Both the position numbers and the translations under genes were made by a program. Under the pieces are notes generated by a model that was given only the letters and a program-made list of their open reading frames with translations, did no database searches and was not told the origin of the DNA. A stretch of DNA of 64,000 nt from a virus: the IMG/VR virus record IMGVR_UViG_3300047994_000617, positions 1 to 64,000 of that record; one strand, given 5' to 3'. Position 1 is the first letter of the stretch; the number at the start of each line of letters is the position of its first letter. Positions 32,252 through 64,000 of the stretch are shown here, one piece after another.

Positions 32252-32355
32252 TGCGCCGGATCAAGCACGAGACGGTCGCCGCCCTCCAGCCCGGCGGCCT
32301 GGGCGATCGGACCGGCGCGCAGGGCGATCTGTTCACCGAGAGGAGGGCTTCCTGA
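32251..32355 (+). CDS. 34-residue peptide with QGDLF motif
   Basis: A very small frame with TGATG overlaps at both ends. The product MRRIKHETVAALQPGGLG then DRTGAQGDLFTERRAS is basic and ends with the same QGDLF motif as its upstream neighbour. If made, it could be a minimal clamp-binding peptide. Its size makes the call tentative. Confidence 0.45.
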   Translation: MRRIKHETVAALQPGGLGDRTGAQGDLFTERRAS

Positions 32356-33251
32356 TGATGTCCGAACGCGACGCAAACCTGTTCCTGTCCGTCATCGACC
32401 GCGCAACGGAGGCGTTGGACCGGGCAGCGGGCGACCTCCTCGCCGGCCGCAGAGGCGACATGGACGGGGCCGCCCAGGCGCTCGACGAGGTTCGTGACGC
32501 CGCCGTGCGCTTCCTCGCGGCAGGCACCGCTTCACCGACCGAGGCGCTGGGCGCCGCCGCGATCCGCGATCACGCACAGGAACATGCCGAGGCCCTGCGC
32601 GGTCGTCCGCGGCCTACCGCCGGCGCCGTGCGCCGCTGGTACTCGTTCTGGCAGGGAACCGCCGTCGGAGCGCGGGACGCGTGGCGCTCCCAGCGGGATC
32701 CCGCCGGACCGGTTACCGACGGCGACCGCTGGCCGCCTTCCCCGCCGAGCGAAGCGGCGAAGGTGAGCGACGCGATGCTGGACGCGACGCTCGCCGCGGC
32801 GCGTGGCGCCCGCGAGCGCATGCTGATCCAACTCGTCGTTGGTGGGTGGCTCCCGGAAGACCTCTGCACGCTCCGTCTCGACCAGGTGCAGCCCTACGTC
32901 GGCACGCTTCTCCGCCTCGTGGACGATGAGCCGTCGCCCAGCGGGATGACGCATTACACGGTGCTCGACGAGACGAAGAGCGAGACGATGCGCGTTTGGC
33001 TGGCTCTGCGGGTGGTCACCGCCGCCGGGACCCCCTTCCTCTTTCCGGGGCTCACGCCCGAACGCGTCGCGGAGACGCTGCGCGACGTGGCGCATCGCGC
33101 CGGCGTTCCGGAGGTGACGCTCGACGCAATCAGGGTGCGCCGCGACGCCGAGATCGAAGCCATGGCAGAGCGCATCTTCTATTCCAGCCCCAGGGTTCAC
33201 GCGCACCTCGCCACGCAGGCGGCCAGGCGCGGAAAGGACCGGCCGTCGTGA
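32355..33251 (+). CDS. Degenerate tyrosine-recombinase-like protein
   Basis: A 298-residue protein starting at the ATG at 32355. The first half is helical, like a core-binding domain. The second half reads RERMLIQLVVGGWLPEDLC, LRLDQVQPYVGTLLRLVD, FLFPGLTPERVAETLRDVA and LDAIRVRRDAEIEA, matching the strand and helix order of a phage-integrase catalytic domain. The position of the first catalytic Arg holds Trp-Leu-Pro, and no Tyr motif follows the LDAIRVRR block. A third probable inactive relative of the 6290 and 8305 genes. Confidence 0.5.
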   Translation: MMSERDANLFLSVIDRATEALDRAAGDLLAGRRGDMDGAAQALDEVRDAAVRFLAAGTASPTEALGAAAIRDHAQEHAEALRGRPRPTAGAVRRWYSFWQGTAVGARDAWRSQRDPAGPVTDGDRWPPSPPSEAAKVSDAMLDATLAAARGARERMLIQLVVGGWLPEDLCTLRLDQVQPYVGTLLRLVDDEPSPSGMTHYTVLDETKSETMRVWLALRVVTAAGTPFLFPGLTPERVAETLRDVAHRAGVPEVTLDAIRVRRDAEIEAMAERIFYSSPRVHAHLATQAARRGKDRPS

Positions 33252-45109: not shown

Positions 45110-47131
45110 ATGGATCGTCCGGTAGAGCAGCTCCCCTACCGCTGCCCGATCTGCCTGCGGCGCACCGGCGATCCGACCGAGACCTGCGGAGGGTGCGGAG
45201 CGCTCGCCTGGGAGAACACCTCCCCCGCCCCGAGGCCGGCTCCCGCGCCCGCCGGGCGCGCGCTCCCTCCTTCGGCGCCTCAGGCGGGTGCCCGGGCGCT
45301 CGCTGCCCTCGCGACGAGCTCGTCCTCCCCGCGCCCCATCGATCTGCCCTACCGGTGCCCGGGCTGCGGACGGCGAGGGGATGACCCGAACGCGGCGTGC
45401 AGCGGGTGCGGTCGGGTCGCCTGGGAGAACACTACGCCGCGCCCGCTCGCCCAGGGCCCGCGGCGCCCCTTCCCGGCGCCCGCGAGGCGCCCGATGGCCG
45501 GATGGCCTCTCGGGCCTCCTGCTCGCCCTCTCACGCCCCCTGAGCGGGCTCCTGTCGCCCCCCGCAGCCCTGTCGCTGGCGCGCCCCCGGCCGCCCCGAG
45601 CCCCCCTGTCGCTGGCGCGGCGGTCCCTGGCCCGGCTGTGGTCGCCGAGGAGCCGCACACCGCGGAAGATCGCAAGTGGCTGAAGGCGATGGAGGCCCAG
45701 ACGCGAAGCGCTCTCCACCAAGCGAAGGCGATCCGCGTCCGGCTTACCCCAAACAGCGCCCTGCTCACCTTCGCCGGGTCCGCCAACCTGACGGTGGACC
45801 AGATCCAGAAGCGGCGCTCGGAGCTCTTGACCACGTTCGGGGTGGAGATCATCGCTGTCCAGCCGGAAGCGGGCGCGATCACGCTCGCCATCGCGCGGCC
45901 CACCCGGCGGGTCGTTCGGTTCCAAGACCTCTGGGGGCAGTGGCGGCCGGAGTCGACCCAAGGCAACAGCGATCTCCTCATCGGCGTCCGCGAGGCCGAC
46001 GGGGCGCTCCTGGTCCTCTCCCCGGGAGCAGCCCATGCTCCGCACACGCTGATCGCGGGCTCGACCGGCAGCGGCAAGTCCGTGCTGATGCAAAACATCT
46101 GCCTCTGCATCGCCGCGACGAACACGGTGGAGCAGGCGGAGATCGTGCTCATCGACCCGAAGCTCGGCGTCGATTACTTCCAGCTCGAGGATCTCCCCCA
46201 CCTTCGCGACGGTGTGATCTGTGACCAGGCGACCGCGCTCAGCCGCCTCCGGGCCCTGGTCGAGGAGATGAACGACCGGTACCGGCGCTTCAAGGAGGCC
46301 AAGGTCCCGAACCTGCGCGCCTACAACACGAAGGCCGGCGCGAGCGATCGGCTCCCGACCATCTGGCTCATCCACGACGAGTTCGCCGAGTGGATGATGG
46401 TCGAGGAGTACAAGGCGGAGGTGATCTCGATCGTGGGTCGCCTCGGCGTGAAGGCCCGCGCCGCCGGCATCCACCTCGTCTTCGCGGCGCAGCGGCCGGA
46501 GGCCAGCGTCATGCCGATGCAGCTCCGCGCGAACCTTGGCAACCGCCTGATTCTGCGCGTCGACTCCAAGGGCACCTCCGAGATCGCCCTCGGCGGCGAG
46601 AAGGGCGCCGAGCAGCTCCTCGGCAAGGGCCACCTACTGGCCAAGCTCGAAGGGACCAGCGGGCTCCACTACGCCCAGGTCCCCTACGTCGACCCCGAGA
46701 CGATGGAGAGCTTCGTGCGGGAGATCGCCCCCGCGGGCACCCCGCGGGTTCGGCGGCCGCCACCCGTGGTGATCGGCCCCGAGGAAGCGCCGCGCCCCAC
46801 CCAGGACCCCGCTCGCAGCTCACGGTCCGCCGGCGCGGCGGGCGGCGACGAGCGGCGGGACGCGCCCGACGGGCGAGGGCGCGGCGCCTCGCCGGACTTC
46901 ACCCGTCCCTTCCTCGCCCACGCCGCCCGCCGCTGGGGCGCCCCCGAGGTCGAGGGCTACCTGGCCGAGCTTCGCGCGAGCGGCGTCCACCCGCAGTCCG
47001 TCAAAGGCTGGCACGACTCCTTCCTGGCCGTCCGCAAAGAACTTCAAGCGATGGCGCGCGAGGACGACGACGGCGAGGACGACGACGGCGATCCGCCGGT
47101 CGGATCGACGGGCTCCAAGCTCTTCCACTGA
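45110..47131 (+). CDS. FtsK/HerA-type DNA-translocating ATPase with N-terminal zinc ribbons
   Basis: A 673-residue protein. Two similar N-terminal zinc ribbons (YRCPICLRRTGDP...CGGCGALAWENT and YRCPGCGRRGDDP...CSGCGRVAWENT) are followed by a Pro/Ala linker. The motor has Walker A AGSTGSGKSVLM (about 315-326), VLIDPKLGVDYFQ, Walker B WLIHDEFAEWMM (about 418-429), and VFAAQRPEASVMPMQLRANL, all FtsK-family hallmarks. Possible roles: packaging of DNA into a virion (as the related PRD1-type ATPases do), conjugative transfer (TraB-like), or segregation. It directly precedes the virion-like module, favouring packaging. Confidence 0.88.
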   Translation: MDRPVEQLPYRCPICLRRTGDPTETCGGCGALAWENTSPAPRPAPAPAGRALPPSAPQAGARALAALATSSSSPRPIDLPYRCPGCGRRGDDPNAACSGCGRVAWENTTPRPLAQGPRRPFPAPARRPMAGWPLGPPARPLTPPERAPVAPRSPVAGAPPAAPSPPVAGAAVPGPAVVAEEPHTAEDRKWLKAMEAQTRSALHQAKAIRVRLTPNSALLTFAGSANLTVDQIQKRRSELLTTFGVEIIAVQPEAGAITLAIARPTRRVVRFQDLWGQWRPESTQGNSDLLIGVREADGALLVLSPGAAHAPHTLIAGSTGSGKSVLMQNICLCIAATNTVEQAEIVLIDPKLGVDYFQLEDLPHLRDGVICDQATALSRLRALVEEMNDRYRRFKEAKVPNLRAYNTKAGASDRLPTIWLIHDEFAEWMMVEEYKAEVISIVGRLGVKARAAGIHLVFAAQRPEASVMPMQLRANLGNRLILRVDSKGTSEIALGGEKGAEQLLGKGHLLAKLEGTSGLHYAQVPYVDPETMESFVREIAPAGTPRVRRPPPVVIGPEEAPRPTQDPARSSRSAGAAGGDERRDAPDGRGRGASPDFTRPFLAHAARRWGAPEVEGYLAELRASGVHPQSVKGWHDSFLAVRKELQAMAREDDDGEDDDGDPPVGSTGSKLFH

Positions 47132-49615: not shown

Positions 49616-50644
49616 ATGCGCTACGCCGACCTGGGCCACGGACTCGAGCGCGCTCCCCGTGGTCCCTTCCTGTCCTTCCCGCCCGTGGACGCTCCGGTCC
49701 CCGACATCCGCCCGATCGGCGGGTTCGGACCGGTGCAACTGCACCCCTGGCGCGGCCCCTTCCCTCCCGTGCCCCTGCACGTCGCGCGCTGGCGCTGGAC
49801 CGGCTACCCCGATCTCTTCGACGCGCTCGACGCGAACGACGACGAGGCTGTCGACGAGGACGAGCTCGCCCGAGGCATCGGCCGGGGGCTCCATCTCCTG
49901 CGCGGCGAGGCGGCGGGGCCGATCGACGAAGAGGACTGGCAGGGAGACCCCGAGGCATTCCGTCTGGTCGACGCCGACGGCGACGGCCGCGTGAGCCACC
50001 GCGAGCTGGCGCAGGCCCTCGGGCCTCACGCCATCCGCCTCGCGCACGGGCATCCGGCGCACGGCCCGATGCTGCCTGCGGGATCGGAGCAGGCGTTCAC
50101 CGCCCACGCCCGCTGGGTCGTGTTCAAGAACCGCGAGGACAAGGCGCAGTACATGCGCCGCGCGGCGATCCACGACGCACAGGATCCCCAGGTCAAGTCG
50201 TGGGCGGTGGAGTTCCTCAAGCTGCCCGAGGACAAGCGCGCGACCGCGATCCTCCGCTTCGTGCAGGAGTGCGTCCGCTACGAGAGGGACCCGGCCACCT
50301 TCGATCCCGATGGCACCCGCCACGGCATCGAGCTCCTCGACAGCGCGCCCACGGGGCTCTGCCGCGGCTACGGGGACTGCGATCTCAAGGCGAGGCTGTT
50401 CGTGGCGCTCTGCCTCGCCTCGGGGATCCCCGCGCAGATCGACCCGGTGTTTCGGGGCGAGACGGGGTTTCCCCATGTCCGCGCGCGGGTGCTGCGCATC
50501 GGGGGAGAGACGTCGGACCCCAGGAACTGGGACGTCGCCGACCCCACGATCGTCAACTCCGACATCGGCAAGCTCCCGGCCAAGCCGCTCACCGCCTGGC
50601 CGGAGCACGCGGGAGAGGCACGGCGGGACACCGGGCCCGAGTGA
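49616..50644 (+). CDS. EF-hand plus transglutaminase-like cysteine protease protein
   Basis: A 342-residue protein. Two canonical calcium-binding loops, DANDDEAVDEDEL (about 72-84) and DADGDGRVSHREL (about 120-132), precede a transglutaminase/papain-like domain. In that domain YGDCDLKARLFVALCLASGI has the nucleophile Cys at about 255, FPHVRARV the His at about 286, and WDVADPT the Asp at about 307. The order and spacing fit the bacterial transglutaminase-like peptidase fold. Located in the virion-like unit, it might cross-link or cleave virion or host surface proteins, possibly under calcium control. Confidence 0.85.
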   Translation: MRYADLGHGLERAPRGPFLSFPPVDAPVPDIRPIGGFGPVQLHPWRGPFPPVPLHVARWRWTGYPDLFDALDANDDEAVDEDELARGIGRGLHLLRGEAAGPIDEEDWQGDPEAFRLVDADGDGRVSHRELAQALGPHAIRLAHGHPAHGPMLPAGSEQAFTAHARWVVFKNREDKAQYMRRAAIHDAQDPQVKSWAVEFLKLPEDKRATAILRFVQECVRYERDPATFDPDGTRHGIELLDSAPTGLCRGYGDCDLKARLFVALCLASGIPAQIDPVFRGETGFPHVRARVLRIGGETSDPRNWDVADPTIVNSDIGKLPAKPLTAWPEHAGEARRDTGPE

Positions 50645-52121: not shown

Positions 52122-52285
52122 TGGCCGCGCCGCGATTGGTCAGCCGCAACGGCGCCCTCTCCCCGCGACCCGTGACGCATCGGCGCGTCGTGGCAGCGCG
52201 CTCCCGCTGCTCGACGCACGACGCTCCGCCGACCCCGTCGGCGTCGCGACCCAATAAGTCGATTTATTGGGTCGCGACCCCGTAA
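52121..52285 (+). CDS. Possible 54-residue peptide
   Basis: The ATG shares its first base with the preceding TGA and the frame ends with TAA at 52283. The product is basic at first and then polar, with weak coding character; its 3' end lies inside the strong palindrome. It may be only a chance frame in the intergenic region. Confidence 0.3.
   Translation: MAAPRLVSRNGALSPRPVTHRRVVAARSRCSTHDAPPTPSASRPNKSIYWVATP
52243..52278. terminator. 15-base inverted repeat, likely bidirectional terminator or operator
   Basis: GTCGCGACCCAATAA pairs perfectly with TTATTGGGTCGCGAC around GTCGAT. It is by far the strongest palindrome in the window and sits between the small beta-rich gene and the giant LysM gene. 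The A/T-rich inner stem would make it a poor classical terminator; it could equally be a protein-binding site. Confidence 0.55.
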
Positions 52286-52371: not shown

Positions 52372-55300
52372 ATGCCGGCGCTGCTGGTGGATGGCGACAC
52401 TCGGGCCGCCGACACGCGTCCACTCGACTTGTCGGGCGGCGAGACCGGGGCGGACATCCTGCCCGTCGGCGGCAAGCCCGCGCGCGCGCCGGAGCCCCTC
52501 CACCTGGACAACCTCGCTGGGCAGCCGGCCCCCCTCCAGCTTTCGCCGGAGCCCGCTCCGAGCGCGCCGAAGCCCGCGCCGCGCGCGCCGTCGCCGCCTC
52601 TCCAGCTCAGCGGCGAGCCCGCTCCCAGCCCGCCGCGGTCTCCGGGGCCCCGTCCCCTCCACCTCGGCGCGTCGCCGGCTTCTCCCGTCAACCCGGTCAC
52701 CCCCAGCGCGCCGTCGGCGCGACCGAGGGGGCCGGGCGAGCCGCGGTCGCTGGTCCCCGGCCTCGGCGGGATCCACGCGGGTCACATGGGCGCGGCCACC
52801 GGCCTCGTCCACGGCGCGGTCTCCCAGGTCGGCCGAACGCACCCCCACAACGTCCACATGGGCCAGCTCGCCCACGGCGCGCACGCCGATCCGGTGCGGT
52901 ACGGCGGCGACTTCCTGATCGCGAGCCACGGACCGAAGCGCTTCCACGAGCTCCACGGGGAAGGGCGGCTCCCGTCGCAGGCGTGGGAGCGCCACCGCGA
53001 TATCGCGCGCCATGCGCGCCGCGTCCACGAGGAGCTGGGCGGCGAGCTCGCGCGCCGCCACGGACGCCGGCCCCTCGGGGAGCGCACCCTGATCGGGATC
53101 GCCGCCATGAACGGGGCGCACGACGACATGGCGCGTTACCTCGACGCCCAGCGGGTCCACCCGCACCACCCGGCGCACGAGAGCTGGCACGTCCTGATGC
53201 GCGGCTTTCACCCGCGCGAGATCGCTCGCGTGGGCTCGGAGATCGTGCCCGGGGGGGCCATCGAGCCGGCGGTCGACGCCTACCGCGCGATCTGGGTGGA
53301 GCGCGCTTCAAAGGCACGCGCGGCGCGCCGCGCGTTGCTCGCGCGCCTCCGCGCCCTCTGGGCCTCAGGCGATCCCTCGCTCGTGCCGGCCTTCGAGGGC
53401 GTCGTCCGGGGCATGAGCCCGGAGCAGACGGCGCGGCTCCGTACGACGATCGAGCAGGACGGGGACATCGCGCGCGTGCTCGAGGAGATCGAGGCCGCCA
53501 ATGCCGAGGCGCGCATGGCCTCACGCGAGGCCGCCATGCGGCGCTGGCTCGCCGAGTACCACGCCAACCGCGACCCGGAGGCCCAGACCCCCCTGGACGA
53601 GCTGGCGATGACGCCCCCCTCAAGCGCGCTCATCGGCGCGGCCGAGGGCGACGAGGACGACGACGAGGACGAGGGGGACACGGGCGGTCGCGGCGGAGGC
53701 GGCGGTCACGGCGGAGGCAGCGGACGCGGCGGAGGCCGCCGTCCGAGCGCATGGGGAGGTGCGTGGGGTGGCGGGGGCACACCTGGCTGGTTCTTCCTGC
53801 CCGAGGACCCCGACGAGGCTCTCGACGACCCCGATCCCGAGGCGGGCGCTCCGATGGGCGCCCCGGCCGTGGCCCCGCTGCGGGCGCCGTCTCCCGGCGC
53901 GCACACCGCCGACGGCGTGGTCCCCCTCCACGAGCTCGTGCAGGGCTTCGGTCGCGCCGGCCGCGAGCAGCTCCGCCAAGCCTGGGACCGCGGCAACCCC
54001 TACGACGCCTACCGCGCGATCCTCGATCAGCGGGGCGAGGCGACGCGCGCCGCGCGCGAGGCCGCGTTCGTGGCGCGTCTGGAGCGCCTCGGCTGCATGG
54101 CCGACGGGCTCTGCGAGATCCCCCGCGAACGGCTCACCGCATTCAGCGACCTCACCGAGATGTTCAGCCCGGAGCAGTGGGCGCGGTTCGCGGCCGCGCT
54201 CACCCAGGGCGAGGACAAGCCGCTCGACCTCTTCCGCCAGATCGAGGCGGAGAACCTCGACGCCGCGAAGGCCACCCGGCCGCTCGCCTTCATGCGCTAC
54301 TTCGGATCCTGGGGGCAGCACGCCGCCCGCTGGAACCCGCTGGAGTGGGCCATGCTGGCCCCCCGGATCGGGGTCGACGCGGCGGACGCGGCGGACGCCG
54401 CTGGGATCTTCGACGACCTGAGCGGCGCCCTGGGCGGCGCGCTCAGCGGAGCGGGCGGTGGCGGCGGCGGCAACCCGCTGTCCGGGCTGTCCGGGCTCCT
54501 GGGCGGCGGTGGCGGGGGCGGCGGGGGCGGCGGGGGTGGTCCGGACTTCGGGCAGATCGCCGGCCTCGTCACCAAGGTCGGCGGCGCGATCGCTGGTGCA
54601 GCAGGGGGGCACCCGGGTGCGGGTCTCCCGCCCGACCTGGCCGGCTTCGCCGCCAAGGCCGTCGGAGCACTCACGGGGCGGGCGGCAGCGCCTCCCGTGG
54701 GGCCTCCCATCGGCGCGCCCGCGGCCCAACCGATCCAGGCCCCGACCCGGCCGGTCGTGCATCCAGCGCCCCCGCCGCCGCCCACGCACGAAGGACCGCC
54801 GCGGCACTTCTTCAAGGTGATCGAGGCGTGGGGCCCGCGCGGCAAGACGCAGCTCGCCCACGAGTGGGTCAAGGGGCTCGTCGGGATCGGCCTCGGCGAG
54901 ATGGCGCAGGCGCAGGGGCCCGCCCTCCTGGATCGGATCGCGGTGCGGGAGCTCCCCGCCGCCAACACCGATCCGGCCCAGGGGTGGTGGTCGCAGCTCA
55001 TCGCGCACCAGGGGATCGACGGGAACGAGGCGGAGGTCGTGCTCGCCGCGATCAACGCCGGCCCGGACGCGATCCCGCAGGCCGTCGCGGCCTACCGCCG
55101 CGTGCTCGAGGGGCCCGTACGCCACCAGGCCCTGGAGCGCGAACACCTCTTCGCCGAGGTGCTCGCCGCGGCGCAGAAGGCCGCCGGCAAGCCCGGCTTC
55201 GACCCGAAGCGGCTCCCCGGCCTCGGCAACCCGTTCGAGGCGTTCTCCCACCGCGCCGGCCGCTGGGGCGCCGTCCACCAGGCGCTCCTCAACGGTTCGG

Positions 55301-58300
55301 GCGCCGCGGAGGCATTCCGCGGGAGCGAGGACCAGCGCGTCGCCGACTACCTCCGCCTGGCCGGTGAGCGGATGGAGCACTTCGCCCGCGAGCTCTGGGC
55401 ACGTCGCTCCAAGGCGGCCCCCGCGCCGTCGCCGGCGGCGCCGTCGGGCCCCGAGGCGGGCGACCCGTTCGAGGCGGGCGCCCTGTGGGGCAATCGCTTC
55501 GGGCGCGAGGGCATCCGCCGCGAGGGCATCGTTCGCGAGGGCTTCGGGCGCGAGGGCATCCGCCGCGAGGGCGTCCTTCGCGAGGGCTTCGGGCGGGAAG
55601 GCATCCGCCGCGAGGGCATCCTCCGGGAGGGCTTCGGGCGCGAGGGCATCCGCCGCGAGGGCGCGCTCCGCGGTCCCCCGATGGGTCCCGGCTGGGGCGG
55701 CCGGCAGTGGTCCGCCGGTCACCCGGGGGCGCACAGCTTCGTCGGGTACGACGGCAAGACCCGCATGGGGGAGCACTTCGTCGATTCGCACGGCTATCAG
55801 GCGATGCGGACGGCGGACGGCCACGTCTGGCTGTGGCAGACGGACGGGTCGGGGTGGAAGGACAATGGCCCGGGAGGGAAAAGCCCCGGGTACAGCGAGA
55901 GAGGCCTCCAGGGCTTCTTCGCGCACGTTCACGCGGCCGAGACCCACGGGCCGGAGGAGGAGGCGGGCTTCGCTGTCCGTCGTCCGCGTCCCTTCTTCCA
56001 CCTCGGATTCAACCGGCCGTGGAGCCGGCTCGAGATGGCCCGCATGCTGGAGGCGGTCCCACAACTCCGGGCGCATCCCGATGGTGTGCTCCAGGAGATC
56101 GCGGGGCGCCGGGCGCGTCCGCGCGACCTGCGAGGCGTGGACGCGACACGCCTCGAATACCACATCCTGCCTCGCGGCGAGTCCTTCAACGACATCGCCG
56201 CGAAGCTGGTCGGGGACCGCCGCCGCGGGGCCGAGATCGTCTTCGCCAACCCCGGGCTCGGCGAGGGCCAACGGACCCTCCGGATCCCTCCGGGATGGCT
56301 CGGCCGGATCCCCCTCCGGATCCCCGCGCACCTCGTTCACGAAGCCGCCGGCCTCGATGCCGGGGAAGCCGGCGAAACCGGCGAGGCCGGGTCGGTCCGA
56401 CGTTCTCGGCGCCGCAACGGCGGTGGGAGAGGGCGGGGAGGGCGGGGCGGCCACGGGGGCGGAGGAGGCGGCTACGGCGGCTTCCAGGGCCCCCAGGGGC
56501 CCCCGGGACCCCCGGGCGACGCCGAGCCGGACGACGACGACGCCAGCGGCTTCGTCGACGACCTCCGGGCCCTCGTGCTCGGGGGCGGCGCCCCCGCGCC
56601 CATGATCTCCCCCCAGCCGGAGCCGCCCATCGACGAGACCCCGGTCGATCTCCTGGAGACGCCCCGCGGCCTCGAGACGCCGGCCCCCGGCCACGGCAGC
56701 GCGGTGGACGGTCCGCGGAGCCCGCTGACCCGCACCACCTACAAGGTCGAGCGGTCCGGCATGGGGATGTTCGCCATCGCCCAGAAGTTCGGAGCCGTGC
56801 CGCCGAAACGCGCCCACTGGTTCGGCGAGCTCCGCGACGCGAACCCGCACAAGCACATCGCCGTCGACAGCGCTGGCAAGCAGATCGGCTGGCAGAGCCT
56901 CGGCAAGGGCGAGGAGATCAACATCCCCGACGCCTGGATCGCGAAGGGCGAGGCCTCCGGCGTCGACGAGGAGGCCGGACAGCCCCTCGCGCTGACCGAC
57001 GAGAACCTCGTGGAGGCGGGGCCCCCCATCTTCGCCAAGCTCGGCGACATCGCCGGCGCGACCAAGATCCTGAGGGCCATCCAGGGGCGCCTCGGGAACG
57101 AGGGGCTCGACACGTTTCAGCGAAGGATCTTCGACGCCATCACGGGGTACTCGGACAAGGACCCGGCGATCGTCGAGGTCTATGCGCTCCTCGGCCGTGA
57201 CCGCGGCGTGGCGGCGGCGCTGGACGGACTCCGGAGCGGGCGGCGCGACAGCAAGGACATCTCCCGCTTCGGCCGGAGGGTGCTCGCTGCGCTCACGGGC
57301 GAGCTCGAAGTGGCCCCTCGCCCCCGCAACTACGACACGCAGGGCCTCGACGAGGCGGGCGACACGGGCGCCATCGACGAGGACGCCCTCCGCCAGAACA
57401 TCACCCAGCGCACGTACGTGGTCCAGCGCGGCGACGGGATGCAGGCGATCGCGAAAAAGCTGGGCGCCTTCCCCGCGCGGCCCAAGTGGTTCGCGGAGCT
57501 CCGGGACGCCAACCCCCACAAGGAGATGGCCACCCAGGGCGGCAAGCAGATCGGCTGGAAGCGCCTCTACGCCGGCAAGGTCATCAACATCCCCGACGTC
57601 TGGCCGGAGTCGCCCGCGCTGGTCGCGCCGCCGAGCGGACCGACCGTCGCTCCCCCGCACCCCGGGATCGAGCACGCGCCCGGAGGCCCGGGAGGGGCAA
57701 CCCCCTCCGTGACGGCCCCGCCGGGGACGATCCCCGCGGCCGCCACGATCGACAAGGGGACCATCCATCGGGTGCAGGCGTACCTCGTGCTGTTCCGCAC
57801 GGGTCACCCGGACGCGATCGATCCGAAAGACTTCGGCGTCGGGATGCCGGTCTCCCAGGACGTGATCGGCGTTCCCTCGGCGCGCACGACGAGGGCCATC
57901 GGGAGCTTCCAGCGCTGGAGCAACCGGACCGCGGGCACGCACCTCCGCGAGGACGGTCAGCTCGACCCGGCCACGATCGAGGCGCTCGATCACTACGCGC
58001 TCACGGCCCTCGACCTGCCCCCGCGGCCGGCCCTGGCGCCGGTCCTCGGCGGGGAGATGCCCCACCCGGCCGACCCCTACGGGCCGCTGCTCGACGGCGC
58101 GGCCCACGACGTGACCCAGGTCGCCGTGGACATCGCCCGCAAGGCCGGCGAGCTCCCGCGCCCGCAGACGCCGCCGCCCGGCGCCGCCCAAATCCCCGAG
58201 GACCCGTACCGAGACCTCCCCAAGCTGCGCGGCGAGGTGATCCGCGTGCTCGACGGCGGCCCCCCGGCCCAGCCGCCCGGTCCCGCTCCGCAGCCGCCGG

Positions 58301-58647
58301 CGCCGGCGCCCCCGCCCGCGGGCCCGCCGCCGCGTCCGGGTCCCCCGCCGCGCCGGCACCGTCCGCCGCGTGACGCGGGGCCCGACATGCGCGCCTCCTA
58401 CGACGCGCCGATCCCGTCGCTCGCGCCCGCCCCTCGGGCGCCGGACGGGCTCCCGCCCGCCGCGCCCCCGGACGCGTCGCGCCCGCCGCCGAAGAAGAAG
58501 GCGGAGGGCGACGTCGGCCCGATGATCGGCGGGACGCTGCTGGGCGGCCTGCTCGGCGGCCCGATCGGAGCGGTCATGGGCTTCATCGGCGGCGCGATCG
58601 CGTCGGAGGACCCGAAGCCGACCCCGCCGCCCGCGAGAAGGGCCTGA
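52372..58647 (+). CDS. Giant (about 2,090-residue) LysM / peptidoglycan-binding protein with glycine zipper
   Basis: The ATG at 52372 has GGAG at a good distance; ATG 52360 is an alternative. In order: Pro-rich segment with PLHL/PLQL repeats (1-110); long helical repeats (150-900, with a poly-Gly stretch near 700-725); an 11-residue GREGIRREG repeat (1038-1100). Three LysM-like modules follow (about 1259-1322, 1455-1524, 1679-1745; e.g. TYKVERSGMGMFAIAQKFGA, TYVVQRGDGMQAIAKKLGA), then a PG_binding_1-like helix set (1792-1876). A Pro-rich tail and a glycine zipper membrane segment close it (2049-2079, GGTLLGGLLGGPIGAVMGF). No hydrolase domain was recognised. It is probably a virion or cell-wall penetration protein. 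Confidence 0.8.
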   Translation: MPALLVDGDTRAADTRPLDLSGGETGADILPVGGKPARAPEPLHLDNLAGQPAPLQLSPEPAPSAPKPAPRAPSPPLQLSGEPAPSPPRSPGPRPLHLGASPASPVNPVTPSAPSARPRGPGEPRSLVPGLGGIHAGHMGAATGLVHGAVSQVGRTHPHNVHMGQLAHGAHADPVRYGGDFLIASHGPKRFHELHGEGRLPSQAWERHRDIARHARRVHEELGGELARRHGRRPLGERTLIGIAAMNGAHDDMARYLDAQRVHPHHPAHESWHVLMRGFHPREIARVGSEIVPGGAIEPAVDAYRAIWVERASKARAARRALLARLRALWASGDPSLVPAFEGVVRGMSPEQTARLRTTIEQDGDIARVLEEIEAANAEARMASREAAMRRWLAEYHANRDPEAQTPLDELAMTPPSSALIGAAEGDEDDDEDEGDTGGRGGGGGHGGGSGRGGGRRPSAWGGAWGGGGTPGWFFLPEDPDEALDDPDPEAGAPMGAPAVAPLRAPSPGAHTADGVVPLHELVQGFGRAGREQLRQAWDRGNPYDAYRAILDQRGEATRAAREAAFVARLERLGCMADGLCEIPRERLTAFSDLTEMFSPEQWARFAAALTQGEDKPLDLFRQIEAENLDAAKATRPLAFMRYFGSWGQHAARWNPLEWAMLAPRIGVDAADAADAAGIFDDLSGALGGALSGAGGGGGGNPLSGLSGLLGGGGGGGGGGGGGPDFGQIAGLVTKVGGAIAGAAGGHPGAGLPPDLAGFAAKAVGALTGRAAAPPVGPPIGAPAAQPIQAPTRPVVHPAPPPPPTHEGPPRHFFKVIEAWGPRGKTQLAHEWVKGLVGIGLGEMAQAQGPALLDRIAVRELPAANTDPAQGWWSQLIAHQGIDGNEAEVVLAAINAGPDAIPQAVAAYRRVLEGPVRHQALEREHLFAEVLAAAQKAAGKPGFDPKRLPGLGNPFEAFSHRAGRWGAVHQALLNGSGAAEAFRGSEDQRVADYLRLAGERMEHFARELWARRSKAAPAPSPAAPSGPEAGDPFEAGALWGNRFGREGIRREGIVREGFGREGIRREGVLREGFGREGIRREGILREGFGREGIRREGALRGPPMGPGWGGRQWSAGHPGAHSFVGYDGKTRMGEHFVDSHGYQAMRTADGHVWLWQTDGSGWKDNGPGGKSPGYSERGLQGFFAHVHAAETHGPEEEAGFAVRRPRPFFHLGFNRPWSRLEMARMLEAVPQLRAHPDGVLQEIAGRRARPRDLRGVDATRLEYHILPRGESFNDIAAKLVGDRRRGAEIVFANPGLGEGQRTLRIPPGWLGRIPLRIPAHLVHEAAGLDAGEAGETGEAGSVRRSRRRNGGGRGRGGRGGHGGGGGGYGGFQGPQGPPGPPGDAEPDDDDASGFVDDLRALVLGGGAPAPMISPQPEPPIDETPVDLLETPRGLETPAPGHGSAVDGPRSPLTRTTYKVERSGMGMFAIAQKFGAVPPKRAHWFGELRDANPHKHIAVDSAGKQIGWQSLGKGEEINIPDAWIAKGEASGVDEEAGQPLALTDENLVEAGPPIFAKLGDIAGATKILRAIQGRLGNEGLDTFQRRIFDAITGYSDKDPAIVEVYALLGRDRGVAAALDGLRSGRRDSKDISRFGRRVLAALTGELEVAPRPRNYDTQGLDEAGDTGAIDEDALRQNITQRTYVVQRGDGMQAIAKKLGAFPARPKWFAELRDANPHKEMATQGGKQIGWKRLYAGKVINIPDVWPESPALVAPPSGPTVAPPHPGIEHAPGGPGGATPSVTAPPGTIPAAATIDKGTIHRVQAYLVLFRTGHPDAIDPKDFGVGMPVSQDVIGVPSARTTRAIGSFQRWSNRTAGTHLREDGQLDPATIEALDHYALTALDLPPRPALAPVLGGEMPHPADPYGPLLDGAAHDVTQVAVDIARKAGELPRPQTPPPGAAQIPEDPYRDLPKLRGEVIRVLDGGPPAQPPGPAPQPPAPAPPPAGPPPRPGPPPRRHRPPRDAGPDMRASYDAPIPSLAPAPRAPDGLPPAAPPDASRPPPKKKAEGDVGPMIGGTLLGGLLGGPIGAVMGFIGGAIASEDPKPTPPPARRA
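55486..55670 (+). repeat. GREGIRREG-type coding repeat
   Basis: About 185 bases of tandem units of 33-66 bases encoding FGREGIRREG.LREG. DNA copies are very similar. The product is a strongly charged, regularly patterned helix, possibly a fibre or coiled-coil arm. Confidence 0.85.
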
Positions 58648-58649
58648 CC

Positions 58650-59558
58650 GTGGCAACGGTGCCCCAGGCGCTCGCCTCGCCGACGTCGATCACGTGGAAA
58701 CACGTCGATCCGGATCTCGGCGCCCAGGTCAAGGCGGCGCTCGCGCTGCGCTCGAGGCCGGGCGCTGACCCACGCGAGGCGTTCCGGAAGATGAGCAGCT
58801 CAGAGCGCGTGCGCTTCCTGCGCGCCCTCTCGATCGGGACGCTGCTCGCCATCGAGGACAGCCGCGTGGGCGGGATCCCTCCCCTCGGGGAGATGGACAC
58901 CGCGCTCACGCTGGGGCGCAAGCCCGTCCGAGCGGACCAGTTCGCGACGCCCGGTCACCTCTACGCCGCGTCGATGCTGGCGCGGGCGCCGATGATGATC
59001 GGCGATCCGGGCAAGCACATGGTCTACAGCGCGGAGACGCGCGAGGGTGACCCCGCTGCCCTCGACACCAAGGGCCCCTCGGCGGAGACCGGAGGAGGCA
59101 CGGACACGGGCCTCGCCCCGATCTTGGTCGGGGTGGCCATCGTGGCGACCACGGGCGTGCTCGGCATCGCCATCTGCTACTGCGGCCAGCTCGCCGCCGA
59201 GGTCGTCGATCGCAAGCTGGCGGACGACGCGCTGACCGCGCGCATGGTGATGACCCAGGCATCGGCCTCGGATCTGGTCATGGCGCACACGGCCCGCGAG
59301 CAGGCCGCGGGCGGCGCCCCGATCCCGTACGACGCGGGGGAGCTGAAGGTGCTCGACATGCTCGGCGGCGCGTACGTCGCGCTGGCGAAGAGAGACAGGA
59401 GCCCGATCCCCAACCCCTTCGCCGGTGCGGTGAAGAGCGCGGGGCGGGCCGTAGAGAACGCTGCGAGCGGCGTGGGCTTCGGCCTGGTCGTCGCGCTGGC
59501 AGCCGCGGGGGCCCTCTACGCCGCATCGCGCGCGGAGGCCGCTCCAGCAGAGCACTGA
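58650..59558 (+). CDS. Integral membrane protein of the virion-like unit
   Basis: A 302-residue protein with GTG start. Hydrophobic segments LAPILVGVAIVATTGVLGIA (about 150-172) and GFGLVVALAAAGALYAAS (about 278-295) are probable membrane helices. It follows the giant protein by two bases. Membrane proteins are unusual among tailed-phage virion genes, so this gene supports a membrane-containing particle. No family recognised. Confidence 0.7.
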   Translation: MATVPQALASPTSITWKHVDPDLGAQVKAALALRSRPGADPREAFRKMSSSERVRFLRALSIGTLLAIEDSRVGGIPPLGEMDTALTLGRKPVRADQFATPGHLYAASMLARAPMMIGDPGKHMVYSAETREGDPAALDTKGPSAETGGGTDTGLAPILVGVAIVATTGVLGIAICYCGQLAAEVVDRKLADDALTARMVMTQASASDLVMAHTAREQAAGGAPIPYDAGELKVLDMLGGAYVALAKRDRSPIPNPFAGAVKSAGRAVENAASGVGFGLVVALAAAGALYAASRAEAAPAEH

Positions 59559-59618: not shown

Positions 59619-60209
59619 ATGACGACTCAAGCAGCGGGAGCGGGTGTGATCACGGTGGACGAGAAGGAGTACGCGTCCGGCGTCCGAGCGAAGGCGAAGC
59701 TCGAGGAGCTGAAGCTCGCCGGGAACACCGAAGAGGGTATGGGCCTCATCAAGGGCGGGAAGTACGGCGCCGGCGTGCTCAAGATCGCGGGCGGCTGGGG
59801 CCCCCTGATCACGGCGGCGCTCGCGGGCGGAGCGATCTTCGCCCTGTCCGAGATGAAGTCCGTCAAGGGCATCCAGTTCTTCAAGGACCACTGGTACGCG
59901 AGGGGCATCGCCGGCCTCTTGCTCGCCGCGTTCTTGTGGAAGAAGGGCTATCAAGTGTGGGCCGCGGCCCTCGCCTCCACCGCGCTCGGCCTGATGTACG
60001 CCGACCACGAGAACCGCCAGGGCGCGCCCCCGAAGGAGGCCAGCGGCCCGGAGGACCCGGACGCCGGGTACTGGATCGGCGGCGCGTGGTACCCGCGGCG
60101 CCACTGGGACGACCCGCGGCTCGTCGAGCGCTACCGCCTGGAGGAGCTGCTCCCCGCGCGGCGCGCGGCCGAGGCGCGGGCGGAGCGCCTCTACGAGGTC
60201 GGGGTCTAG
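59619..60209 (+). CDS. Small integral membrane protein
   Basis: A 196-residue protein with a strong GAAGGAG ribosome-binding site. About three hydrophobic segments: LITAALAGGAIFALSEM, GIAGLLLAAFLW, WAAALASTALGLMYA, followed by a hydrophilic tail with YWIGGAWYPRRHW. Second membrane protein in a row before the candidate capsid gene. Confidence 0.7.
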   Translation: MTTQAAGAGVITVDEKEYASGVRAKAKLEELKLAGNTEEGMGLIKGGKYGAGVLKIAGGWGPLITAALAGGAIFALSEMKSVKGIQFFKDHWYARGIAGLLLAAFLWKKGYQVWAAALASTALGLMYADHENRQGAPPKEASGPEDPDAGYWIGGAWYPRRHWDDPRLVERYRLEELLPARRAAEARAERLYEVGV

Positions 60210-60268: not shown

Positions 60269-60304
60269 TCCACAAGGATGAGACGAGGACGGGAGAGCAA
60301 GGAC

Positions 60305-61627
60305 ATGGACGCACAGCAGGTTCTCAGTGAAGTGAAGGGTAAGGTCTCCGCCGCCGCGGCGCGGGAGGCCGCCGGGATGGAGGCTGGCGAAGCGGCGGGT
60401 GACACCGCCGGCGTGGACACGGCCCTGGCCGAGGCCGGCGCGGCCGCGGAGGCGCCCGCCGTGATCGTGACGGCGCCGTCGATCGAAGCCGGCATCGAGC
60501 ACCTCAAGCGCGAGGGCGCCCTCAACGTGGAGACCCTGGTGGGCCTCACGCACCACGCGGCGCGGGTCCAGGGCAAACACAGCCATCGGCATGGCTTCCG
60601 CCAGGGCCTGAACCACCACCGCAGGGTCCGGGGAGCGTTCATGCGGCCCCACGACTTCCCGGTGCCGTACGGCCGGAGCGAGGACATGAAGGGGTTCCGG
60701 TACGACGTCATCCAGCGCTTCGCCGAGGGGAACGGCGGCAAGGTGGTGTCGCAGGCGGGCGAATACTACGGGACCTTCCAGACCGCCTTCACCGTTTCGT
60801 CCTTCGGCGGATCGAGCCCGACGAGCGGTCTCTTCTCGATCGTGGTCCCGCCCACGCCGGCGAGCAGCACCTACTACGTCAACCCCCCCGCCGACACCTG
60901 CTTCGACTTCAGCATCGGGGAGTCGGACCCGAACTGGTTCGGGGGGCCACACACGATGACCCTCGCGGACACGAACCTGCAATACCCCGGCCAGGGCCTC
61001 TACCAGAAGGAGGTCTTCATCATCGAGGCGTGGGAGGCCCGCTTCAAGGGGCTCCGGATTCAGTTCGACACCACGAAGATCCCGGGCTTCTCGGCCCTCC
61101 CGCTGCCCATCCAGGCCATGCTGCAGGGGCAGGCATGCATCTGGGATCGCGAGAACCTGGTGCTGCCCTCGGGCATCTTCAACAAGCTCACCGACGTCTG
61201 CGAGCTCGCGCAGGCGCTGGCGGAGGTCGCCAGCATCCAGCTCGAGTGGGTCAACCTCGGGCCCGGGTCGAACAACGTCGTCGCCACGAAGCCTCTCGGG
61301 CGCATGTGCGGCAACCCCTCGACCTACCGCCGGAGCGTCGTGGAAACGAGCGGCGGCGGTCTCGCGCTCGACCTCCCCCGCGGCTACATCTGGTGCCAGG
61401 ACGAGACGTTCCAGCCCAACGAGGACAGCGGCGGCAATGGCTTGCTCTACGGGCAGCTCCTCCTGAACGACAACGTGGACTGGCCGTTCCCGGCGCTCGC
61501 GTCGGTCTACGGGTCGGGCCCCATCGTGCCGACGGGGATCGCCCTGGAGTGGCAGTTCAAGGTCTACGGCACCGCGCTCCTGCCCTCGAAGGCGGACCGG
61601 CGCCTGAACGTCCAGCGCCGAAGCTAG
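60305..61627 (+). CDS. Candidate major capsid protein (unassigned family)
   Basis: A 440-residue protein starting at the ATG at 60305 with GGGAG upstream; ATG 60278 is possible. The first 100 residues are helical and charged, with a His-rich turn (HHAARVQGKHSHRHGFRQ). The remaining 340 are beta-rich with many aromatic and Pro residues (YYGTFQTAFTVSSFGG, VFIIEAWEARFKGLRIQFD, LALDLPRGYIWCQDE, WQFKVYGTALLPSK), typical of jelly-roll proteins. It is bracketed by strong hairpins, suggesting high expression, and does not look like HK97-fold capsids. The capsid identity is inference; a spike is the alternative. Confidence 0.5.
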   Translation: MDAQQVLSEVKGKVSAAAAREAAGMEAGEAAGDTAGVDTALAEAGAAAEAPAVIVTAPSIEAGIEHLKREGALNVETLVGLTHHAARVQGKHSHRHGFRQGLNHHRRVRGAFMRPHDFPVPYGRSEDMKGFRYDVIQRFAEGNGGKVVSQAGEYYGTFQTAFTVSSFGGSSPTSGLFSIVVPPTPASSTYYVNPPADTCFDFSIGESDPNWFGGPHTMTLADTNLQYPGQGLYQKEVFIIEAWEARFKGLRIQFDTTKIPGFSALPLPIQAMLQGQACIWDRENLVLPSGIFNKLTDVCELAQALAEVASIQLEWVNLGPGSNNVVATKPLGRMCGNPSTYRRSVVETSGGGLALDLPRGYIWCQDETFQPNEDSGGNGLLYGQLLLNDNVDWPFPALASVYGSGPIVPTGIALEWQFKVYGTALLPSKADRRLNVQRRS

Positions 61628-61703: not shown

Positions 61704-62288
61704 GTGCCCGTCCCGCTCCTCCCCGCCAACGTCAACGCCCAGAAGATCGATCCTCGGGAGCGCGATCCGAGGAAGAACGTGCTGGAGATCGCTCTCCCCT
61801 CGCCTGGCATCCGGCGGGCGTACATCGTCCTCCAGACCGGCACGATCACGGACGAGGAGTGGAATCGGATCTGGTGGACGCTTCAGGCCGACGTGATGCT
61901 TGCGGAGACCTTCGACGGCCTCGACCACATCTCCCTCCTGCCAGGCCTGCTGGAGATCGCGCCGCTCACGACCACCGTCGCTCACGTGGCCACGGCATAC
62001 TGGGTGGAGGGTTTGCCCGCGACGAGTATCCGCGTGCGCGTGTCGAGCTACGGAGAGCAGCCCTCGGGCTATGCGCAGGTCTACGGCTGGGGCGACACGA
62101 CCCCGCACGACAAGTCGGGGCTCTGGCCGGCGCCCTATGGGCACGTCCGTCAGCCGCGACGCATCGTCGCGCCACTGCCCGATCCCGAGCAGACCCTCGG
62201 CGAGACGTCGCTCGTCGATTTCCTCATGTTCACCGACCGGATCGGCGCGCCGCCGCGCGAACCGCAGGTGAAGCTGCACAAACGTTAA
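61704..62288 (+). CDS. Beta-rich virion-like protein
   Basis: A 194-residue protein with GTG start after GAGGAG. Alternating strands and Trp/Tyr-rich turns (RRAYIVLQTGTITDEEWNRI, SIRVRVSSYGEQPSGYAQVY). No known family. Placed between the candidate capsid gene and another small beta-rich gene, it may be a minor capsid or spike protein. Confidence 0.65.
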   Translation: MPVPLLPANVNAQKIDPRERDPRKNVLEIALPSPGIRRAYIVLQTGTITDEEWNRIWWTLQADVMLAETFDGLDHISLLPGLLEIAPLTTTVAHVATAYWVEGLPATSIRVRVSSYGEQPSGYAQVYGWGDTTPHDKSGLWPAPYGHVRQPRRIVAPLPDPEQTLGETSLVDFLMFTDRIGAPPREPQVKLHKR

Positions 62289-62313: not shown

Positions 62314-62757
62314 ATGTCCGCTGTTGCCCCCAGCCTCATCCTGCCCGTACAAGTCATCAGCCCCGTCCCGTGGACGGGGAACATGCAAGCCGTCGTCACC
62401 GTCAACTGCCTCGACGGCGATACCGGCCAGACGGCCTCCCGCGCGAGCGCCTGGATCCAAGTGCCACCGGGCATGATCCCCCAGCTCTCGCTCGGCCTCA
62501 GCGCGGAGACCGGTACCTTCGGGTGCTACCTCGAGACCTGCAACCAGGTCGTCGCCGGCGCCGCCGTCGACACCCCCCGCCCCATCGGCTACTTCAAGCA
62601 GACCCCCGGGGCCGCGCTGCCGACCTCCACGCCGATGTCGGGAGGCCAGCCCACCGACAACTGGGTCCGCGTCCAGAGTCAGGTCGGCAACGGCGGCAGC
62701 GTCGCATGGCTGGTGAGCGGTCGCTTCATCGCCGCGTCGTACGCGCAGCAGCTCTGA
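62314..62757 (+). CDS. Small beta-rich protein
   Basis: A 147-residue protein, rich in Val, Thr, Gly and Pro, e.g. LILPVQVISPVPWTGNMQAV, VVTVNCLDGDTGQTASRAS, GCYLETCNQVVAGAAVD. Looks like a single beta-sandwich domain. Probably structural; family unknown. Confidence 0.6.
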   Translation: MSAVAPSLILPVQVISPVPWTGNMQAVVTVNCLDGDTGQTASRASAWIQVPPGMIPQLSLGLSAETGTFGCYLETCNQVVAGAAVDTPRPIGYFKQTPGAALPTSTPMSGGQPTDNWVRVQSQVGNGGSVAWLVSGRFIAASYAQQL

Positions 62758-62769
62758 TCTCGAGGTCGA

Positions 62770-64000
62770 GTGGCCCTCTTGCTGATCCAGGCGGGGACTG
62801 GCGGCGCGCTCTGCGTCTACGCCAGCCCCTTGCCTGACGTCAGCCCGGGCCACCCGGACACCACCACCGCGCCCGGCATGCCCGGGCCGACCAAGGCCGC
62901 CCTCGGCCCCGTCCCCTGCATCGTCGGCGTCAACGCCCGGGGCTCCGAGACCCCGGAAGAGATCCTCGCCTTCGCCACGGCGAAGACGGGCCGGGAGCTC
63001 TGGTGGGGTGCGCTGATCGGCGTCTCCCGGGGCTGCCAGAGGGTCCGCGACCTGTGGATCGCCGGCGCTGGGGCCCTCGCCCTGGTCCTCATCGACGGCA
63101 TGGCTGGCGTGAAGCCGCCCACCGAGATGCAGAAGGGCTTCACCCAAACCATCGTCGCCCTCGCGCGGTCCGGCGCGATCCTTTTGGTCGTCAGCCACAC
63201 GTACATCGACCAGGGCAAGGCGATCACCTCGACCGCCGAGATGGCGCGGACCGCCACGGGGTGGTCGCTGCCCCCTCCGCCCGTCGGGGAGACCGTGCGC
63301 CGGGTCCAGATGCCCGCCGGCGAGACGCCAGCCCCTCCCGGCTGGCGCGGGGGCCTGGTGGTCTTCTCGACGGGCTCGGGCCCGGCCGATGGCGGCGCCC
63401 ACCGCGACCAGATGGGCAAGCTGCTCCCGCTCATCCTCGAGGATCGGGTGCGGCCCCTGGTGAGCCTGGCGGAGCGGCCCGAGGTGGTCGCCTCCGCGGT
63501 GCCGGCGAGCTCGCCGGAGCCGGAGGCCGAGACGGGGCCGTGGAGTCGCCTGGGCGCCTTGCCGGCGCATGGATCTACGGCTGCACCTACCGCTGCACCA
63601 ACCGCTGCACCAACCGCTGCACCAGGGCGCACGACCGCAGACGGGGCGCGGCGCTACCTCTTGATCGGCGACTCGTTCGCCCAGGGCTTCGGGCCGCCCC
63701 TCGCCGAGCTGGCCGGGAAGCGGCGCCTCGCCTTCCGGGGGGTCGGCATCAAGTCGACCACGATGGGCGACTGGCTCACGGGCGGGCGCGGGGCGGACCT
63801 CCGCGGCGCCGTCGAGGCCGCCGACCCAACGGTCACGATCGTGTCGCTCGGTGCGAACGACATGGCCGGAGGCGATGCAGCGGGCCGCCGGGCCGGGGAC
63901 GTTATCGACACCCTCCGCCGCAACGGCTCGGCCGCAGTGCTCTGGGTGGCGCCGCCGAAGATGCCCACCGAGAGCGCCCCCTTCCGCACCGCCCTCGCCG
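62770..64000 (+). CDS. SGNH/GDSL hydrolase, partial
   Basis: GTG start at 62770; the frame is open to the window end (410 codons). The first 250 residues form an alpha/beta domain (WWGALIGVSRGCQRVRDLWI, ALVLIDGMAG, ILLVVSHTYIDQGKA). A TAAP-repeat linker leads to a clear SGNH hydrolase start: LIGDSFAQGFG (block I Ser), GVGIKSTTM (block II Gly), and SLGANDMAGG (block III Asn). Block V with Asp and His lies beyond the window. Such enzymes remove acetyl or acyl groups, often from cell-surface glycans or peptidoglycan. Likely a virion or lysis function. Confidence 0.85.
   Translation, partial: MALLLIQAGTGGALCVYASPLPDVSPGHPDTTTAPGMPGPTKAALGPVPCIVGVNARGSETPEEILAFATAKTGRELWWGALIGVSRGCQRVRDLWIAGAGALALVLIDGMAGVKPPTEMQKGFTQTIVALARSGAILLVVSHTYIDQGKAITSTAEMARTATGWSLPPPPVGETVRRVQMPAGETPAPPGWRGGLVVFSTGSGPADGGAHRDQMGKLLPLILEDRVRPLVSLAERPEVVASAVPASSPEPEAETGPWSRLGALPAHGSTAAPTAAPTAAPTAAPGRTTADGARRYLLIGDSFAQGFGPPLAELAGKRRLAFRGVGIKSTTMGDWLTGGRGADLRGAVEAADPTVTIVSLGANDMAGGDAAGRRAGDVIDTLRRNGSAAVLWVAPPKMPTESAPFRTALA
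63579..63624 (+). repeat. 12-base tandem repeat (TAAP linker)
   Basis: About four near-identical units of ACCGCTGCACCA encode Thr-Ala-Ala-Pro, joining the N-terminal domain and the SGNH hydrolase. Unit number could vary without changing the frame. Confidence 0.85.

What the first reader, a model, noticed from the sequence alone, without database searches (positions are those of the whole stretch)
52372..58647. Giant LysM protein with glycine-zipper end and no hydrolase
About 2,090 residues combine long helical repeats, an 11-residue charged repeat, three LysM-like modules, a peptidoglycan-binding-like domain and a membrane-inserting glycine zipper. The order suggests a protein that binds the cell wall and then inserts into or bridges a membrane. 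I know of no described protein with this full architecture.
Basis: partly seen in the sequence, partly recalled or inferred. Interest (0 to 1): 0.68.

Follow-up and report, generated by a model that had tools for sequence, protein, structure and literature searches.

The report
Giant cell-wall-binding, membrane-anchored phage protein
A little-known, GC-rich virus of bacteria carries a 2,091-residue protein that has at least two cell-wall-binding (LysM) modules and a membrane-inserting tail, and the enzyme that would cut the wall is a separate protein about four kilobases downstream, so the pair probably helps the virus cross or break the bacterial envelope.

Summary
The ORF is real: ATG 52372, stop 58647, 2,091 aa, GC3 0.91, GGAG upstream. 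No relative was found in phage, plasmid, viral-contig or species-genome collections. The domain list is partly right. Two LysM modules are well supported: they are 61% identical to each other, the predicted fold is beta-alpha-alpha-beta, Foldseek returns many LysM domains, and one scores far above shuffles with an E. coli-derived LysM profile. The third 'LysM' is not supported. A peptidoglycan-binding domain is suggestive but below threshold. The charged repeat is a 15-residue unit, not 11. The C-terminal glycine zipper is real. 'No hydrolase' is true of the polypeptide only: six genes downstream on the same strand, gaps of at most 76 bp, lies a 1,039-aa SpoIID lytic-transglycosylase/SGNH protein that also ends in a hydrophobic segment. 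The record (128,625 bp, IMG/VR) shows no terminase (two Pfam families tried), portal, HK97 capsid or tape-measure match. Best reading: a tail-anchored, wall-binding entry (or lysis) protein working with that hydrolase in a virus of unknown morphology. A tape measure or baseplate protein of a very divergent tailed phage is not excluded. In passing: a repeated 'ARLAGFALLG' tag on DarB-like and other enzymes, probably a capsid-targeting signal.

The parts
52243..52278 (.). perfect 15-bp inverted repeat (GTCGCGACCCAATAA-GTCGAT-TTATTGGGTCGCGAC) about 94 bp upstream of the gene, a possible operator or terminator
   Evidence: sequence shows it; the arm occurs nowhere else in the window except a third 2-mismatch copy beside it
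52372..58647 (+). giant protein, 2,091 aa
   Evidence: open frame, GC3 0.91, GGAG before ATG
53275..53616 (+). helical repeat copy 1 (aa 302-415)
   Evidence: Smith-Waterman against copy 2, z=13.5, 0 of 300 shuffles
54004..54363 (+). helical repeat copy 2 (aa 545-664)
   Evidence: as above
55498..55677 (+). four copies of a 15-residue charged repeat FGREGIRREG(I/V)(V/L)REG (aa 1043-1102; fourth copy ends ALRGP)
   Evidence: TRF and direct reading
   Evidence: 0.1 bits with a LysM profile, within shuffles; no Pfam match
56722..56946 (+). LysM module (aa 1451-1525)
   Evidence: 61% identical to the other LysM; weak on its own (2.2 bits)
57397..57621 (+). LysM module with a hairpin insertion (aa 1676-1750)
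   Evidence: Pfam LysM E=0.008, AF2 fold, Foldseek, profile 11.1 bits
57868..57987 (+). PG_binding_1-like segment (aa 1833-1872), below threshold
   Evidence: E=0.0076 and 0.005
58510..58611 (+). C-terminal glycine zipper / tail anchor (aa 2047-2080), 11 residues from the C-terminus
   Evidence: hydropathy 1.6, 7 GxxxG, shuffles 2 of 2,000; NCBIfam PdsO zipper region E=0.0013
58650..59558 (+). membrane protein, 302 aa, one internal and one C-terminal hydrophobic helix; starts 2 bp after the giant gene
59619..60209 (+). small protein with moderately hydrophobic stretches, probably membrane, 196 aa (no 19-residue window reaches 1.5)
60278..61627 (+). 449-aa protein, capsid candidate by eye only; unverified
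   Evidence: no database match; AF2 without alignment failed, pLDDT 33
61704..62288 (+). 194-aa protein of unknown function
62314..62757 (+). 147-aa protein of unknown function
62770..64000 (+). start of a 1,039-aa wall-hydrolase protein (runs to record position 65889): SGNH hydrolase + SpoIID lytic transglycosylase + C-terminal hydrophobic tail
   Evidence: Lipase_GDSL_2 8e-7 (below its cut-off) and DUF459 2e-6 (just over its cut-off), SpoIID 5e-11, alignment to solved SpoIID, one frame across the window end

Best explanation
It is a virus-encoded, tail-anchored, cell-wall-binding envelope protein. Inferred steps: helical and Pro/Gly-rich linker segments act as a long spacer; the two C-terminal LysM modules and the PG-binding-like segment dock on peptidoglycan; the C-terminal glycine zipper inserts into a membrane (virion membrane or host inner membrane), so the protein holds wall and membrane together. 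The wall itself is cut by the separate SGNH/SpoIID protein encoded six genes downstream, which carries its own C-terminal hydrophobic tail and could sit in the same membrane. The likely use is genome entry (gripping protein and hydrolase on the particle, as with PRD1's membrane-associated lytic enzyme), with release at lysis the second choice. Shown: modules, gene order, shared C-terminal tails. Not shown: that either protein is in the particle, that the two act together, or the particle's morphology.
For: Two LysM modules; sub-threshold PG_binding_1; zipper as only membrane segment, 11 residues from the end. The following gene starts 2 bp later and encodes a membrane protein with a C-terminal helix; gaps of 2-76 bp run through to the hydrolase. 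SpoIID domain aligned to solved SpoIID over its LP(M/L)EEYV..VV..E stretch. Three genes within 13.5 kb (giant, 58650, 62770) end in a hydrophobic segment 14 or fewer residues from the C-terminus. Precedent: the membrane-containing phage Jorvik carries a P7-like lytic transglycosylase and an M15 peptidase (PMC10589892), and the Bam35/Toil tectivirus maps include a LysM protein (PMC5894146).
Against: No homologue anywhere searched, so no comparative test. The capsid is unidentified; the only fold attempt failed. Known prokaryotic double-jelly-roll viruses found by a capsid probe have roughly 7-18 kb genomes (PMC5894146), not 128 kb. LysM domains also occur in baseplates, where they may be structural (Foldseek hits phi812, phiCD508 and PVC baseplates). 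The FtsK ATPase at 45110-47131 is closest (53-63%) to plasmid proteins beside cysteine-desulfurase/PAPS-reductase genes, so it is not evidence of packaging.
Confidence: 0.42

Rival explanations
1. It is the tape measure (or a baseplate/hub protein) of a very divergent tailed phage: helical segments set tail length, LysM modules sit in the baseplate, the hydrophobic end enters the host membrane on ejection.
For: Tape measures are long, helical, and often carry wall-active domains (P1 Sit, PMC9024508). LysM occurs in phage baseplates. A DarB-like antirestriction protein in the record (phrog_10089 8.6e-29) is typical of P1-like tailed phages. Three paralogous fibre/spike-like proteins share a 95-aa N-terminus, one weakly matching a tail PHROG.
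Against: No terminase (PF03354, PF03237), portal, HK97 capsid or PhageMin_Tail match in six frames of the whole record. Half of the protein is low-complexity, unlike a continuous tape-measure helix. The neighbours tested have no PHROG tail match.
Confidence: 0.25
2. It is a late lysis-stage protein: it crosslinks inner membrane and wall, or places the SpoIID hydrolase, to release progeny (spanin- or holin-like role).
For: Tail-anchored membrane topology, wall-binding modules, same-strand hydrolase downstream; a second, GH25-type endolysin exists elsewhere (L005:324-1076) and a small multi-helix membrane protein could be a holin (L002:8257-8700).
Against: 2,091 aa is far larger than any spanin or holin I know of; it sits among candidate structural genes, while the GH25 gene is about 66 kb away in the record.
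Confidence: 0.13
3. It is a 'polyvalent' co-injected protein or virion-internal cargo.
For: The same record encodes giant multidomain proteins (DarB-like methylase-helicase; 3,285-aa serpin protein), and polyvalent proteins can carry wall-active domains including SpoIID (PMC5512222).
Against: It lacks the GFALLG-type tag found on such proteins of this record and has no detected enzymatic domain; polyvalent proteins combine several biochemical activities.
Confidence: 0.1
4. The record is a plasmid or chromosomal island of a high-GC bacterium misfiled as a virus, and the protein is an ordinary surface protein of its host.
For: 72% GC, ParA, kinase, PP2C phosphatase, serpin; plasmid-like FtsK; no standard tailed-phage hallmark genes.
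Against: Endolysin-type GH25, DarB-like antirestriction, pRha, DnaB/DnaC-type replication genes and spike paralogues; no match in plasmid or species-genome searches.
Confidence: 0.1

Closest known systems
PRD1 P7-type, membrane-associated lytic protein of tailless membrane phages (tectiviruses, Jorvik)
   Same: wall-active function linked to a membrane, encoded among structural genes; in Jorvik two wall hydrolases were shown active (PMC10589892)
   Different: P7 is 265 aa (from its annotated CDS) and carries the enzyme itself; here the 2,091-aa protein only binds and the enzyme is separate; no sequence similarity to PRD1, PM2 or P23-77 structural proteins
LysM protein of Rhodococcus phage Toil (tectivirus)
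   Same: LysM fold matched by Foldseek (rmsd 2.4, TM 0.56 by query length); Bam35/Toil group maps list LysM (PMC5894146)
   Different: 328 aa; no evidence of the other modules or of common descent beyond the LysM fold
Tape measure / baseplate LysM proteins of tailed phages and contractile injection systems
   Same: long, helical segments, LysM modules
   Different: no family match; no detected tail module in the record; Pro/Gly-rich linkers and C-terminal zipper
Polyvalent proteins / P1 Dar proteins
   Same: giant proteins, one of them DarB-like, in the same record
   Different: no enzymatic domain and no tag in this protein

Membership tests
LysM domain (PF01476) | beta-alpha-alpha-beta fold with YxVxxGDxxxxIA motif | tested here: met
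   aa 1676-1744: AF2 fold, Foldseek, Pfam E=0.008, profile 11.1 bits against at most 4.6 in shuffles; below Pfam's gathering score
   two copies supported; aa 1256-1325 at shuffle level
PG_binding_1 (PF01471) | match above the curated cut-off | tested here: not met
   16.9 and 14.5 bits against 23
Peptidoglycan hydrolase | catalytic domain in the polypeptide | tested here: not met
   no catalytic family in whole protein or segments
Tape measure protein | match to PF10145 or a PHROG tail family | tested here: not met
Tape measure protein | neighbouring tail tube / sheath / baseplate genes | tested here: inconclusive
   neighbours tested have no PHROG tail match, but are orphans
Tailed phage (Caudoviricetes) | terminase, portal, HK97 capsid | tested here: inconclusive
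   PF03354, PF03237, PF04860, PF05065 absent in six frames; only these families were tried and the record may be a fragment
Tailless membrane-containing phage | jelly-roll major capsid protein | tested here: inconclusive
   candidate 60278-61627 failed to fold without an alignment; no convincing similarity to P23-77, PM2 or PRD1 except a PAPS reductase
Tailless membrane-containing phage | FtsK/HerA packaging ATPase | tested here: inconclusive
   FtsK present but closest to plasmid Dnd-like cluster proteins
Polyvalent protein | several distinct biochemical (mostly catalytic) domains in one polypeptide | tested here: not met
Tail-anchored membrane protein | single hydrophobic segment at the C-terminus, inserted in membrane | tested here: inconclusive
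   segment present; insertion not testable here

The most novel reading that the evidence does not exclude
A tailless or otherwise unclassified 128-kb bacterial virus, with no detectable relatives, enters cells with a two-part membrane-tethered machine: a giant non-catalytic wall-gripping protein and a separate tail-anchored multi-domain hydrolase, both held in the virion membrane. This would be an entry apparatus not described before, in a genome several times larger than known prokaryotic membrane-containing viruses.
Probability: 0.17. Interest if true: 0.78.

Novelty: new variant of a known kind. Interest (0 to 1): 0.5.

Why it matters
If the protein is in the particle, it separates wall gripping from wall cutting in a viral entry system, jobs that are often combined in one enzyme. 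The record also gives a place to test whether a large bacterial virus without recognisable tail genes exists. Even if it turns out to be a tape measure, it marks a structural module that current phage family libraries miss completely.

Tried and rejected
Relatives of the giant protein: tblastn in phages and plasmids, pattern scans of viral and species-genome contigs, then LysM-only queries; none. Relatives through neighbours (FtsK, capsid candidate, spikes, 31608 protein, 58650 protein, 194-aa protein) in viral contigs: none. FtsK as packaging ATPase: weakened because plasmid Dnd-like proteins are the nearest. Capsid fold of 60278-61627: failed, pLDDT 33, not used. M15 and CHAP domains that I saw by eye in the 1,039-aa protein: not confirmed (PF08291, PF05257 absent; Pfam on segments), though aa 76-189 of its second part matches phage proteins of unknown function at 40%. 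Direct comparison with P23-77, PM2 and PRD1: only a PAPS-reductase match.
Full report
What was checked. The window is the first 64,000 bases of a 128,625-base virus record; I read the rest in four pieces. The finding's ORF is real: ATG 52372 to stop 58647, 2,091 aa, codon-position GC 0.78/0.57/0.91, with GGAG before the ATG. Whole-protein searches give no Pfam family, one PHROG 'endolysin' match at E=0.03 over aa 1676-1745, and an NCBIfam match over the glycine zipper only. No relative was found in phage or plasmid records, IMG/VR or species genomes, with the full protein or the LysM pair. The pattern-based scans find close relatives only, so for those collections this is a statement about close kin.

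Modules. Two LysM modules hold up. aa 1451-1525 and 1676-1750 are 61% identical. The profile of the pair finds only four PDB chains at E<=10 and all four are LysM proteins, in register. AlphaFold2 on the pair gives beta-alpha-alpha-beta with a hairpin inserted before the last strand, pLDDT 75; Foldseek puts LysM domains throughout the top hits in PDB and BFVD, though no hit is below E=0.001. A profile of five LysM domains from E. coli MltD, NlpD, Kbp and ActS scores the second module at 11.1 bits, maximum 4.6 in 500 shuffles; the first scores 2.2, inside shuffle noise, and counts as LysM through its paralogue. The PG-binding-like segment is below threshold. The zipper has 7 GxxxG motifs, reached by 2 of 2,000 shuffles. 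The charged repeat is 15 residues, four copies. Two 115-120-residue helical segments are repeats of each other. About half the chain is low-complexity.

Neighbourhood. The gene opens a run of seven same-strand genes with gaps of 2, 60, 68, 76, 25 and 12 bp: giant protein, membrane protein with a C-terminal helix, small probable membrane protein, 449-aa protein, 194-aa and 147-aa proteins, then a 1,039-aa protein running from 62770 to record position 65889. This last protein has an SGNH-type domain, a SpoIID lytic-transglycosylase domain (E=5e-11; aligned to solved SpoIID) and ends two residues after a hydrophobic segment. Thus the wall enzyme that the finding misses is encoded close by. The giant protein, the 302-aa protein and the hydrolase all end in a hydrophobic segment within 14 residues of the C-terminus. 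Upstream are an EF-hand/transglutaminase-like protein and a further protein of unknown function. Downstream are three proteins that share a 95-aa N-terminal domain with different ends, one C1q-like, probably spikes or fibres.

What kind of virus. Six-frame searches of the whole record found no terminase (two families), portal, HK97 capsid or PhageMin_Tail, and no tested neighbour of the giant gene matches a PHROG tail family. This leaves either a tailless virus or a tailed one too divergent for these profiles. The capsid could not be settled: the one fold attempt failed without an alignment. The FtsK ATPase would fit a tailless virus, but its nearest relatives (53-63% identity) are the ends of large plasmid proteins beside cysteine desulfurase, DUF4007 and PAPS reductase genes, so I do not use it as evidence. 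A DarB-like protein points towards a P1-like particle; P1 is tailed.

Mechanism. The most likely reading is a tail-anchored wall-binding protein of the particle or of the late infected cell, which holds peptidoglycan close to a membrane while the separate tail-anchored hydrolase cuts it. Membrane-containing phages are known to carry lytic enzymes (PMC10589892) and LysM proteins occur in the Bam35/Toil group (PMC5894146). What is shown is anatomy and gene order; location, partnership and morphology are inferred. The main rival, a divergent tape measure or baseplate protein, keeps about a quarter of the probability.

Novelty. No described protein with this combination was found (one literature search for LysM, glycine zipper and phage together returned nothing), but each module is of a known kind, so 'new variant of a known kind' is the fair label.

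In passing. A short tag, (S/T)AR(L/T)xGFALL(G/R), recurs in one to three copies at the ends of several unrelated proteins of this record, including the DarB-like methylase-helicase. In P1 the first 30 residues of DarB suffice to direct a reporter to the capsid (PMC9024508). The tag is therefore a candidate capsid-targeting peptide shared by a set of cargo enzymes; I did not test its statistics beyond counting.

Noticed in passing
L003:10094, 10187, 10280; L004:12861, 13770, 13827, 13884, 14939, 17676, 17736, 17804 (record about 94-122 kb): Short tag ((S/T)AR(L/T)xGFALLG/R, 'GFASLG/A' in the DarB-like protein) in one to three copies, spaced by Pro/Ala linkers, at the N-terminus (or C-terminus, L004:17676-17736) of a DarB-like methylase-helicase, a LigT-type 2H phosphoesterase (Pfam 1e-20), a PAPS-reductase-like protein, a NUDIX protein, another PAPS reductase and a phrog_5935 protein. 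Candidate capsid-targeting peptide for co-packaged enzymes, by analogy with the P1 DarB N-terminal signal.
   Followed up: partly
L004:1689-11546: 3,285-aa open frame holding a full serpin domain (Pfam 3.5e-105) and a C39-peptidase-like segment; a serpin in a virus record of this kind is unusual as far as I know.
   Followed up: no
window 45110-47131: FtsK/SpoIIIE ATPase 53-63% identical to the C-terminal parts of about 1,750-aa plasmid proteins in clusters with cysteine desulfurase, DUF4007 and PAPS reductase (Dnd-like) across Alphaproteobacteria, Bacteroidota and Chloroflexota.
   Followed up: partly
L002:3822-8042: Three paralogous proteins share a 95-aa N-terminal domain (64-72% identity to the first) and differ in their C-terminal parts, one C1q-like, one collagen-like, one Gly-rich: probably alternative spikes or fibres.
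   Followed up: partly
window 52243-52285: Perfect 15-bp inverted repeat plus a third imperfect arm upstream of the giant gene; no other copy in the window or L002.
   Followed up: partly
window 49616-50644: EF-hand pair fused to a transglutaminase-like domain directly upstream of the cluster.
   Followed up: no
window 31608-33251: N-terminal 134 aa match phrog_24928 (4.5e-37), shared at 38-59% identity with Micromonospora, Salinibacter and Paenibacillus phages.
   Followed up: no
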